Assembly: GCA_024697865.1 (NCBI GenBank)
Contig: JAILSC010000001.1
Location: 1 to 50,194 of the forward strand
From: Candidatus Saccharimonadota bacterium
GTDB taxonomy: Bacteria; Patescibacteriota; Saccharimonadia; Saccharimonadales; Saccharimonadaceae
Length of the DNA: 50,194 bases
Direction of reading: 5' to 3'
The position numbers and the translations under genes were made by a program. Every line of letters starts with the position of its first letter. Positions within the stretch are counted from its first letter, which is position 1. The notes beneath the pieces are model-generated. The model was given only the letters and a program-made list of their open reading frames with translations. It was not told where the DNA came from and did not search any database. Below are positions 12,336 to 44,648 of this stretch, piece by piece.

Positions 12336-12352
12336 TATTTTACAGTATTAGA

Positions 12353-12474
12353 GGTAGGTCTGTGCTTTTGCTTTAGCAAAAGCACACCTTTCGGCGTCAC
12401 TCGAAGAAAGAAAAGTAAACTTTCTTTTCTTGCTCGTTTCCTTGAAAGGGCGAACTTACGGTTCGCGACCTACC
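12353..12474 (+). other. Structured element: perfect four-way junction (candidate ncRNA)
   Basis: These 122 bases hold four nested or adjacent helices with no unpaired base at the junction. Outer helix: GGTAGGTC (12353-12360) with GACCTACC (12467-12474). Arm 1: TGTGCTTTTGC (12361-12371) with GCAAAAGCACA (12376-12386), loop TTTA. Arm 2: CCTTTC (12387-12392) with GAAAGG (12444-12449), enclosing an internal loop and an imperfect A/G-rich hairpin (12404-12431). Arm 3: GCGAAC (12450-12455) with GTTCGC (12461-12466). A terminator-like hairpin follows at 12488-12521. The strand is undecided since the fold exists on both. It may be a small RNA or a small mobile or recombination element. Confidence 0.55.
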
Positions 12475-12487
12475 CCAAGCATATCAG

Positions 12488-12521
12488 AAATAAAATAAGC
12501 CCTAAAGGGCTTCTTTTATTT
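12488..12521. terminator. Bidirectional rho-independent terminator
   Basis: AAGCCC / GGGCTT with loop TAAA is flanked by AAATAAAAT on one side and CTTTTATTT on the other, so it can end transcription in both directions: tRNA-Tyr on the minus strand and any plus-strand transcript of the four-way-junction element. Confidence 0.8.
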
Positions 12522-12524
12522 CTA

Positions 12525-12610
12525 TGGTGCTGGAGGTAGGACTCGAACCTACGAAGCGCGAAGCGCGAGAGATTTACAGTCTCTTGTCATTGCCACTAGA
12601 CGACTCCAGC
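12525..12610 (-). tRNA. tRNA-Tyr(GTA)
   Basis: An 86-base class II tRNA: acceptor GCTGGAG/CTCCAGC, anticodon arm AGAGA/TCTCT with loop CTGTAAA (anticodon GTA), a long variable arm with CGCGCTTCGCGC, T-arm GTAGG/CCTAC, discriminator A, encoded CCA. It lies 41 bases downstream of tRNA-Thr on the same strand and likely shares its promoter. Confidence 0.95.
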
Positions 12611-29642: not shown

Positions 29643-30586
29643 TATTTATGGTGCTCCTTTTTGGTAGTAGGCTTTTGGCCAGAAATAAGGGAACGAACAA
29701 ACTTGATAAACTCGTTCATGGCGGGCATCAAAGCTAAGAAAATCAGAATCATGATGAAGTTGAGGATAATGACTTCGGTAGAAGGTGTAGAGCCACGGAA
29801 GAGGGCGGCGAAAATAGCCGAGAAAATGACCATATAAATAATCGCGATCGAAGCTAAAATAACAATATAAGATAAGATACGTAACCAAATGGAAGCGAGA
29901 TTAAGAGCTCTGTAGCGCAAAATAGTATAGTAAACAGCGATAATGGTTACGGCAAGAGCGAGAGGACCAAGCCAGATCAAGCTCCAATTACCCAGAATAG
30001 GGAGGATGAGATTAAAAATTAGGACTACTAAACTGGAAGTGCCAAAGCAACTCATGGTGATAATGTCGCTACCTTTGCGACGGCTGGAACGAGCGCGAAG
30101 GTATTGTTTCAGGAAAGTCCCAACGATAGCCGGAACGATAATAGAGAAAAAGGCAATGTAGGAGAAGTAAAGCGGACCGATGTTCATGGTGACAGTATTG
30201 CCAGTGTATTGTAAGTCGACGGCCGAATAGAGACTGGACGGGCTGATAAAAATGGCGGAAGAAACAACTAGACCAAAAAGCAAGAATGCTAAGGTGAGAA
30301 TTTTGCCGTATTTTTGATTCCATGCGGCATAGCCGAGGAAGGCGACGTCGAGTAGGATGGCGCTAATAAAAGTCCAGTTGACTGGCCCGTAGATACTTTC
30401 GATCGCATCGGGTTTAGCGGTGAGGAAGATTGATATTGATGCCATCCAAACGGTGGCAAAAATCGCAGCCATAAAGTACCAGAGCGAGCGAATCCGATCA
30501 CCTTTGGATGAGCCAAAGAAGACGATGGAACCCGACAGGAACGTTAATACGGCTACTGTAGCTAATAATATAATAATTAGTTGCAT
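29642..30586 (-). CDS. Seven-helix membrane protein, sensor-like, without kinase
   Basis: A 314-residue membrane protein with about eight hydrophobic segments. The layout and sequence style (FTAKPDAIESIYGPVNW..., YYTILRYRALNLASIWLRIL) resemble the N-terminal 7TM sensor region found on some histidine kinases, but the protein ends after the membrane part with GQKPTTKKEHHK and has no kinase domain. It is translationally coupled (TAATG) to the CAP protein gene downstream. ATG 30586 has AGGAGG 3 bases upstream. Function unknown; a receptor or a transporter helper are possibilities. Confidence 0.75.
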   Translation of the reverse strand: MQLIIILLATVAVLTFLSGSIVFFGSSKGDRIRSLWYFMAAIFATVWMASISIFLTAKPDAIESIYGPVNWTFISAILLDVAFLGYAAWNQKYGKILTLAFLLFGLVVSSAIFISPSSLYSAVDLQYTGNTVTMNIGPLYFSYIAFFSIIVPAIVGTFLKQYLRARSSRRKGSDIITMSCFGTSSLVVLIFNLILPILGNWSLIWLGPLALAVTIIAVYYTILRYRALNLASIWLRILSYIVILASIAIIYMVIFSAIFAALFRGSTPSTEVIILNFIMILIFLALMPAMNEFIKFVRSLISGQKPTTKKEHHK

Positions 30587-43412: not shown

Positions 43413-43988
43413 ATGGATAACATATCTGAATTCATTGGACACTTTCAGATGCCGGAATTGTTTATTATGCTAGGGGTAGGACTAGCGGTGCTGTTATTCG
43501 GCTACAGATTGAAGAAAATTGCTTTCTTTATCATTTGGTTTTTACTAGGGTTTATTGGCGTGACCTATTTGATGCCCGAAATTATTAAATTATCGCCGGA
43601 AATAGCCAGCAATGACTTGTACCAGACTTTAATTCCGATTGGCGGGGGGCTACTATTGGCCCTACTTGGATTCTCGATCGAGAAGTTATGTGTGGGTGGA
43701 ATTTGTTTCGTATTAGTAATGCTGGTTTCGACCCAATATTTTGGGGCCGAAATGCAAACTTTGGCCATGTCGGCAGTGGTAGGGGTAGTTGCAGCTGGGG
43801 CGGCGGTGATGCTAATGAAACCAGCTACAATTATCGCAACTGCGGCAGCTGGAGCCTATGCGATTACCTTGGCGCTTCTAGCCTTAATCCCGAATCTTAG
43901 CTTCGGAGAGTTTTATTGGCCATTAATTATTGGGATAGCGGCAGCGGGTTCAATCTTCCAATTCTTGACAACTAAGCGGGTTTCGTGA
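43413..43988 (+). CDS. Multi-pass membrane protein, TMEM198/DUF4203-like
   Basis: A 191-residue protein with about seven hydrophobic segments (for example FIMLGVGLAVLLFGYRLKKI and AFFIIWFLLGFIGVTYLM). The regularly spaced glycines and the layout resemble DUF4203/TMEM198 proteins; the assignment is weak. It sits between rplA and rplJ, an unusual place for a membrane gene, with its own promoter and no terminator before the rplJ leader. Function unknown. Confidence 0.7.
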   Translation: MDNISEFIGHFQMPELFIMLGVGLAVLLFGYRLKKIAFFIIWFLLGFIGVTYLMPEIIKLSPEIASNDLYQTLIPIGGGLLLALLGFSIEKLCVGGICFVLVMLVSTQYFGAEMQTLAMSAVVGVVAAGAAVMLMKPATIIATAAAGAYAITLALLALIPNLSFGEFYWPLIIGIAAAGSIFQFLTTKRVS

Positions 43989-43994
43989 TATAAT
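43986..43994 (+). promoter_or_regulatory. Extended -10 promoter of rplJ-rplL
   Basis: TGATATAAT overlaps the stop region of the TMEM198-like gene; start predicted near 44001, at the first base of the L10 leader. Confidence 0.75.
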
Positions 43995-44000
43995 TGAGGT

Positions 44001-44122
44001 AGTTACCAAAGACAGTAGCGAGGTTTACCTTTAATTATGCTACCGAGGAAATTTTCTTAAATTTATTTGGTGACGCTGTTTAACAATTAGCTAACCAAAT
44101 ATCAAAGTTAACCAAAGGAACT
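44001..44122 (+). promoter_or_regulatory. L10 leader (ribosomal autoregulatory RNA)
   Basis: An outer helix GTTACCAAA (44002-44010) with TTTGGTGAC (44066-44074) encloses AAGACAGTAGCGAGG...TGCTACCGAGG, the conserved L10-binding kink-turn region of the L10 leader family. ACCAAA recurs at 44094-44099 and 44111-44116, so TTTGGT could switch partners; the last copy abuts the rplJ ribosome binding site (AAAGGAA). Confidence 0.82.
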
Positions 44123-44126
44123 TTTT

Positions 44127-44648
44127 ATGGCAATTTCAAAAGATAAAAAGAACGAATTGGTTGCTGATTTAACTGAGCTTCTATCTAACGCTAAGACTAC
44201 AGTTTACGCTAAATATCAGGGCTTAACTGTGGCAGAGTTGCAAGAGTTACGTAAAGATGCCCGGGAAGCTGGCGTGCAGATTAAGGTGGTAAAAAACCGC
44301 TTGGTTCGCGTAGCGATGGGACAAATCGCCGTCTATAAAGATACAGATACTACTGGTTTAACCGGCCAGTTGCTTTATGCCGTATCTAATGACGACGAAG
44401 TAGCTCCAGCGAAAGTTTTGGCGGAATTCGCCAAGAAGCATAACGCTTTAAGCTTGGTGGGTGGTTTCTCGGATTTAGGTGCAAACCTATCAGAAGACGA
44501 AGTCAAGGCTCTCGCAGCCATGCCAAGCAAGAACGAACTAATCGCCCAGGTAGTGGCACAACTCTTGTCACCAATGACCGACAGTATCTCTGGTCTTTCC
44601 GGTGGTTTGTCCGGCATTGTGTCTGGTTTGGAAGCCCAAGCTAAATAA
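44127..44648 (+). CDS. rplJ: 50S ribosomal protein L10 (uL10)
   Basis: A 173-residue protein of normal length, starting MAISKDKKNELVADLTELLS and containing VYAKYQGLTVAELQELRKDA and VQIKVVKNRLVRVAM, the L10 rRNA-binding domain, and a C-terminal helix that holds L7/L12 dimers. It is preceded by an L10 leader RNA and is followed 34 bases later by rplL. Confidence 0.96.
   Translation: MAISKDKKNELVADLTELLSNAKTTVYAKYQGLTVAELQELRKDAREAGVQIKVVKNRLVRVAMGQIAVYKDTDTTGLTGQLLYAVSNDDEVAPAKVLAEFAKKHNALSLVGGFSDLGANLSEDEVKALAAMPSKNELIAQVVAQLLSPMTDSISGLSGGLSGIVSGLEAQAK

What the first reader, a model, noticed from the sequence alone, without database searches (positions are those of the whole stretch)
12353..12474. 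A 122-base element that folds into a perfect four-way junction
Four helices meet with no unpaired base at the junction: outer GGTAGGTC/GACCTACC (8 bp), an 11-bp perfect arm, a 6-bp arm leading to an A/G-rich hairpin, and a 6-bp arm. Positions 60/61, 86/87, 449/450 and 466/467 (plus 12300 or 12000 as applies) are all directly abutting. It lies between the pseudouridine synthase promoter and a bidirectional terminator beside two tRNA genes, in a genome that keeps few spare bases. A plus-strand RNA would be about 165 bases and end at the terminator. It could be a new structured RNA, or a folded DNA site used by a recombinase or transposase.
Basis: seen in the sequence. Interest (0 to 1): 0.78.

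Follow-up and report, generated by a model that had tools for sequence, protein, structure and literature searches.

The report
Tiny mobile element at tRNA ends
The folded 122-base stretch is one copy of a previously unlisted family of tiny (about 165-base) mobile DNA elements that sit exactly at the 3' end of tRNA genes in Saccharibacteria, fold into a perfect four-way junction and carry a strand complementary to the tRNA they sit behind; the enzyme that moves them is unknown.

Summary
A covariance model finds the fold in 138 of 174 genomes of this Saccharibacteria genus (up to 18 copies each) and in other genera of the family, with overwhelming covariation. Of 136 copies examined, 107 lie 10-57 nt behind the 3' end of a tRNA gene (13 isotypes), in tRNA orientation (here the minus strand). 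A unit is: terminator hairpin, spacer, four-way junction, then a repeat of the tRNA's last 18-19 bases (A58/59 to the CCA end). A near-identical sister genome has the exact empty site. Two species with unrelated flanks carry units identical at 169 of 170 bases, while each repeat matches its own tRNA. So it is a non-autonomous mobile DNA element with a target-derived repeat. It does not look like an RNA gene: helices hold few G-U pairs (2.2%, against 6.4% in neighbouring tRNA stems), hardly more than A-C. The left strand of the closing stem is element-borne and complementary to the target T-arm, so the junction sits at tRNA position 57/58. The mobilising enzyme is unidentified. The window copy is old (decayed repeat).

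The parts
12525..12610 (-). tRNA-Tyr(GTA), the target tRNA gene behind which the unit lies
   Evidence: ARAGORN and Rfam
12486..12524 (-). Palindromic bidirectional terminator, first part of the unit, directly after the CCA of the tRNA
   Evidence: terminator scan on both strands; in the pair L195/L200 the terminator is part of the near-identical unit
12475..12485 (-). Spacer between terminator and four-way junction
   Evidence: alignment of copies
12467..12474 (-). Left strand of the outer stem (GGTAGGTC on the minus strand), element-borne, complementary to the T-stem copy
12450..12466 (-). Arm 2, GCGAAC/GTTCGC: complement and copy of the tRNA T-loop sequence GGTTCG
12387..12449 (-). Arm 3: 6-bp stem, conserved internal loop with tandem G-A motif (ACGAG/CGAGT), long inner palindrome
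12361..12386 (-). Arm 4: 11-bp hairpin TGTGCTTTTGC/GCAAAAGCACA
12343..12361 (-). Decayed direct repeat of tRNA-Tyr bases 58-76 (AGACCTACCTCTAATACTG against AGTCCTACCTCCAGCACCA); its first part (12353-12360) is the right strand of the outer stem

Best explanation
A small non-autonomous mobile DNA element (about 165 bp without its repeat) that inserts precisely at the 3' end of tRNA genes of Saccharibacteria. SHOWN by sequence comparison: the unit starts right after the tRNA's CCA with its own terminator, then the four-way junction, and is followed by a second copy of tRNA bases 58/59-76; a sister genome has the exact empty site with one copy of that repeat; almost identical units occur at the same tRNA in different species with unrelated flanks, each with a repeat of its own host tRNA; units pile up in tandem behind one tRNA. 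INFERRED: insertion uses a staggered (18-19 nt) cut, or equivalent copying of the target, between the T-loop (57/58) and the end of the tRNA (A76). The working form is folded DNA: the left strand plus arm 2 supply the complement of the T-arm, so that folding rebuilds a T-arm-like duplex with arms 3 and 4 branching at 57/58, and an unidentified recombinase or transposase supplied in trans recognises that junction and the conserved arm-3 loop. Among the four enzyme families searched, only tyrosine recombinases occur in nearly all genomes (103 of 108), so a Xer-like tyrosine recombinase is the leading, untested candidate. The window copy is an old, probably inactive insertion.
For: Dispersed copies: 138 of 174 genomes, up to 18 each. 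107 of 136 copies 10-57 nt 3' of a same-strand tRNA of 13 isotypes. Right edge repeats the tRNA end (mean score 14.1, other isotypes' tRNAs 5.3); 48 copies with an exact 17-nt repeat, most extending to 58 or 59 and 31 stopping exactly after the CCA. Exact empty site at tRNA-Leu(CAA) in a 98% identical sister genome; further empty-type matches at tRNA-Tyr. L195/L200: 169 of 170 identical, flanks no better than unrelated sequence, repeats follow each host tRNA. L275: donor-type left strand with host-type repeat. Tandem arrays. G-U 2.2% and A-C 1.5-1.7% in the helices against 6.4% and 0.34% in tRNA stems. Strong covariation of all helices. Nearest relatives sit at the same tRNA in other genomes (47 of 111, 7.5 expected).
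Against: No mobilising enzyme is identified, no excised or new copy was caught, and 44 of 107 tRNA-proximal copies have no recognisable full repeat (decay is the assumed reason). In L211 the repeat resembles a donor tRNA rather than its own. Parts are exchanged at orthologous loci (L250/L244, L271/L249, L179/L339), which a simple insertion does not explain. G028 shows no tyrosine recombinase match yet has copies.
Confidence: 0.72

Rival explanations
1. An attC-like folded attachment site: conservative site-specific recombination by a tyrosine recombinase between the folded single strand and the T-arm of the tRNA gene; the repeat is an att identity block carried by the element, not a target-site duplication.
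For: Folding rebuilds a T-arm-like duplex with the branch point at 57/58. T-loop to CCA repeats are usual for tRNA-targeting integrases (own knowledge). Tyrosine recombinases are nearly universal here. Module exchange breaks at the GTTCG of arm 2 and at the repeat. L211 carries a donor-like repeat.
Against: Repeats follow the host tRNA when the rest of the unit is 169/170 identical and in L275; conservative exchange should leave one donor-type copy.
Confidence: 0.25
2. A structured RNA gene or cis-acting RNA, multiplied next to tRNA genes.
For: Strong helix covariation; conserved tandem G-A loop on one strand.
Against: G-U hardly more frequent than A-C and far rarer than in tRNA stems; a terminator precedes it in tRNA direction and no promoter-like match lies in front of it; mobile behaviour and precise empty sites; no Rfam family.
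Confidence: 0.08
3. A casposon-like or CRISPR-adaptation-like insertion by a Cas1 integrase at tRNA 3' ends.
For: Casposases insert at tRNA 3' ends with target duplications (PMC6977970); polar accretion at the tRNA side resembles spacer addition.
Against: Cas1 found in only 8 of 108 genomes and not in the window genome; casposon duplications are 14-15 bp and include only the last 4 bp of tRNA-Leu in M. mazei, with 31-bp terminal inverted repeats; here 17-20 bp wholly inside the tRNA and no such inverted repeats.
Confidence: 0.03
4. No dedicated mobile element: replication or repair errors (template switching at the T-arm palindrome) duplicate the tRNA end and build palindromes in place.
For: Perfect palindromes and inverted tRNA segments are typical of template switching (own knowledge); other short inserts with the same repeat exist (L301, L383).
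Against: Conserved arm-3 motif and architecture over many species; 169/170 identity between species in unrelated flanks; another species' left strand in L275.
Confidence: 0.08

Closest known systems
Integron gene cassettes and attC sites (IntI)
   Same: Palindromic site with little sequence conservation; arrays of units behind one primary site; an attC is recognised only as a folded single strand (PMC4792948)
   Different: No gene cargo, no integrase beside it, primary site is a tRNA 3' end, repeat of 17-20 bp copied from the target, fold is a four-way junction with element-target complementarity
Casposons (Cas1-solo transposons)
   Same: Insertion at tRNA 3' ends with a target-site duplication (PMC6977970)
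   Different: Duplication 14-15 bp against 17-20 bp and in a different place; no terminal inverted repeats; Cas1 absent from most carriers
MITEs and other small non-autonomous elements
   Same: Under 200 bp, no genes, dispersed, target-site duplication, palindromic
   Different: No terminal inverted repeats and no known parent transposon; insertion restricted to one position in tRNA genes; conserved four-way fold
REP/BIME elements with RAYT (Y1) transposases
   Same: Small dispersed palindromes with structure-based recognition (PMC2817692)
   Different: Target-site duplication and tRNA specificity; Y1 transposase found in only 5 of 108 genomes
tRNA-targeting integrative elements with tyrosine or large serine recombinases
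   Same: Use of tRNA 3' ends; the same tRNA ends here also host roughly 5-9 kb serine-recombinase elements
   Different: Those are kilobase elements carrying their recombinase; here about 165 bp without genes, and the repeat follows the host tRNA

Membership tests
Small non-autonomous mobile DNA element (general) | Dispersed copies at non-orthologous places | tested here: met
   13 tRNA isotypes, many genomes
Small non-autonomous mobile DNA element (general) | Occupied and precise empty sites in close relatives | tested here: met
   G056 against G191 at tRNA-Leu(CAA)
Small non-autonomous mobile DNA element (general) | Mobilising enzyme supplied in trans | tested here: inconclusive
   tyrosine recombinase in 103/108, serine in 61/108, Cas1 8/108, Y1 5/108; no functional link shown
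MITE | Terminal inverted repeats shared with a parent transposon | tested here: not met
   aligned units show no conserved terminal inverted repeat; left ends after CCA are variable terminators; no gene-bearing unit in the 2-kb flanks
Casposon | Cas1-solo integrase in the carrier | tested here: not met
   8 of 108 genomes
Casposon | 14-15 bp target duplication at the tRNA 3' edge | tested here: not met
   17-20 bp, A58/59 to A76; reference
Integron attC | Folded single-strand site with AAC crossover, cassette ORFs and integrase IntI | tested here: inconclusive
   palindromic folded site and arrays seen; no cassette genes in units; IntI not searched separately from PF00589
REP/RAYT | Y1 transposase in carriers | tested here: not met
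   5 of 108 genomes
Structured RNA (Rfam-type) | Match to a known family | tested here: not met
Structured RNA (general) | RNA-type helix evolution with tolerated G-U pairs on one strand | tested here: not met
   G-U 2.2% against A-C 1.5-1.7%; tRNA control 6.4% against 0.34%
Structured RNA (general) | A transcript | not testable with these tools
   no expression data; promoter scan without a match in front of the element

The most novel reading that the evidence does not exclude
Target choice is nucleic-acid guided: the element's left strand (complement of tRNA 59-66 followed by the complement of GGTTC 53-57, never complementary to G57-A58 in 99 copies) pairs with the T-arm of the target tRNA gene, and insertion occurs at that point. 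This would be a minimal guided DNA insertion system of about 165 bp that finds tRNA genes by base pairing.
Probability: 0.2. Interest if true: 0.95.

Novelty: new variant of a known kind. Interest (0 to 1): 0.8.

Why it matters
It would add a class of mobile DNA, present in most genomes of a streamlined episymbiont genus, that lives at the conserved ends of tRNA genes without disrupting them and spreads between species. It makes concrete questions testable: which enzyme reads a DNA four-way junction, how a 17-20 bp copy of A58-A76 arises, and whether a mobile element finds its target by complementarity. Saccharibacteria are naturally competent (PMC10633639), so transfer can be tried in culture, and a precise tRNA-end integrator could become a tool for bacteria that are hard to engineer.

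Tried and rejected
Rfam at gathering and permissive thresholds: no family. Phage and plasmid collections and two motif scans of viral contigs: no copies; an earlier 17-mer scan hit five viral contigs, none with the fold, and most of its genome hits are chance matches outside Saccharibacteria. Y1 transposase and Cas1 as mobilisers: too rare. An element-borne att block as source of the repeat: disfavoured by L195/L200 and L275, though L211 fits it. Homologous recombination through the tRNA as the route of transfer: disfavoured because both repeat copies are host-type in L195 and L200. Gene-bearing units with the same ends: none within the 2-kb flanks; kilobase inserts between three tRNAs and displaced units are serine-recombinase elements. 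The Gln-locus empty-site search was ambiguous, because unit terminators resemble displaced ones. Literature searches found no description; most subscription papers are not held. The whole genome was not available as a file.

Full report
CHECK OF THE OBSERVATION. The four helices at 12353-12474 are present and directly abut, as described. The fold is far more stable than shuffled sequence on both strands (z -8.2 and -6.3). No Rfam family matches the element at curated or permissive thresholds.

HOMOLOGUES. A BLAST survey of 100 related genomes gave dispersed partial copies in the same genus. A covariance model from 12 copies found the element in 138 of 174 genomes of the genus, up to 18 copies per genome, and in further genera of the same family, with only two weak matches in other families. 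Named relatives are Candidatus Saccharibacteria, many from sheep and goat gut. In an alignment of 86 matches 93.6% of cells pair (63.9% shuffled), 43 of 45 pairs change on both sides, and the covariation score is 0.719 (0.184 shuffled, at most 0.136 for slid structures); 59 other matches agree. These alignments were fitted to the model and lean towards it, but the controls do not approach the observed values.

ANATOMY. I took 136 copies with flanks. 107 have a same-strand tRNA gene ending 10-57 nt upstream, mostly 44-56, from 13 isotypes; most others are at contig ends, are second copies of an array, or are displaced. In tRNA orientation (the window's minus strand) a unit reads: CCA of the tRNA, palindromic terminator, spacer, left strand of the outer stem, arm 2, arm 3, arm 4, then a direct repeat of the tRNA 3' end. 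The right edge matches its own tRNA with mean score 14.1, against 5.3 for tRNAs of other isotypes; the left edge, read in reverse complement, 10.4 against 5.7. Of 48 copies with an exact 17-nt repeat (tRNA 60-76), 24 extend to base 58, 17 to 59, 2 to 57 and 5 no further; 31 stop exactly after the CCA. Unit plus repeat is 144-191 bp, median 183. A second terminator often follows the right repeat, as expected for a displaced original 3' flank.

INSERTION. At tRNA-Leu(CAA) the sister genomes G056 and G191 are 98% identical; G056 has a unit and G191 the exact empty site with a single repeat. At tRNA-Arg(CCT), G191 has a unit where G056 has a different short insert at the same place with the same repeat. 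Contiguous empty-type matches exist for the tRNA-Tyr unit of G201. Units L195 and L200 (tRNA-Val, genomes G006 and G018) are identical at 169 of 170 positions including the terminator, while the 200 bp on either side align no better than unrelated sequence and each repeat follows its own tRNA. L275 has the left strand found in another species' tRNA-Ser unit (L047) but a repeat identical to its own tRNA. So the repeat is target-derived and the left strand element-borne. L211 is a counter-example: its repeat is closer to a donor tRNA. By arms 3-4, the nearest relative is the same tRNA in another genome in 47 of 111 cases (7.5 expected), and the same genome in only 3: spread is mainly between species into like tRNAs. 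Arrays of identical or different units behind one tRNA occur.

MODULARITY. Parts are exchanged at orthologous loci: same arms and repeat with different terminators (L250/L244, L271/L249), or same terminator and arm 2 with different arms (L179/L339). Breakpoints lie at arm 2 and at the repeat. In the window's own trio, G028 has lost arm 3 and part of arm 4.

DNA OR RNA. In the model alignments the helices hold 2.2% G-U and 1.5-1.7% A-C; by a separate folding of single arms that rewards Watson-Crick pairs only, G-U is 0.3-0.6% in arms 2-4. Acceptor and T stems of the neighbouring tRNAs have 6.4% G-U and 0.34% A-C. Near symmetry between G-U and A-C argues that the structure is kept at the DNA level. 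The conserved tandem G-A motif of arm 3 exists as such only on the tRNA-sense strand, which I take as the functional strand (inference). The promoter scan gives no match in front of the element on either strand, weak negative evidence.

MECHANISM. Folding places the complements of tRNA 59-66 (outer stem) and 53-57 (arm 2) next to each other, so the point where arms 3 and 4 leave corresponds to tRNA position 57/58, where the repeat also begins. The two left-strand bases opposite G57-A58 are never complementary to them in 99 copies. I infer recognition of this folded T-arm mimic by an enzyme in trans and a staggered or copied target. Tyrosine recombinases occur in 103 of 108 genomes, serine recombinases in 61, Cas1 in 8, Y1 in 5; none is shown to act here. 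Casposases make 14-15 bp duplications, which in M. mazei include only the last 4 bp of the tRNA (PMC6977970). Folded-strand recombination has a precedent in integron attC sites (PMC4792948), and natural competence in Saccharibacteria (PMC10633639) offers a route for single strands; both are analogies, not evidence.

VERDICT. The family is real and is or recently was mobile; I found it in no searched collection or paper. The window copy itself is old: its repeat is decayed beyond the T-stem and it is shared by close relatives. The enzyme and the chemistry are open.

Noticed in passing
L362 5656-7347, L363 6967-8511, L364 2271-3875: Large serine recombinases whose genes end inside a tRNA gene (Glu, Asn, Leu). 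In each case a displaced four-way-junction unit lies at the far end of the insert (roughly 7-9 kb), behind a short tRNA 3' fragment.
   Followed up: partly
L383 (G056:C1 about 30275-30340); L299, L302, L301 (tRNA-Gln loci): Shorter inserts at tRNA 3' ends (some tens of bases) with the same kind of tRNA-end repeat; several start with a T run directly after CCA, and L299/L302 look like reduced versions of the fold.
   Followed up: partly
L346 (G000:C10, behind tRNA-Cys): Second, weak match in the window's own genome (38.5 bits); the arm-3 motif appears in reverse orientation and is flanked by a repeat GGCGCCTCCATTTTTT.
   Followed up: no
L171, L011, L295, L268 downstream of the right repeat: A similar stretch (...TAAATGYCTRTTAAATCYCTCG...) follows units at tRNA-Ile and tRNA-Val in different genomes; perhaps the end of another tRNA-associated element.
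   Followed up: no
L013 upstream, L264 and L223 downstream of tRNA-Tyr, L046: Another repeated sequence near these units (GCCGSCATCTCGGC..TTTTTTCTTG..TCGCTCATCCATAAGATGCACTT).
   Followed up: no
window 43988-44136 (+): Rfam L10_leader above its gathering score, an ordinary ribosomal protein leader.
   Followed up: no
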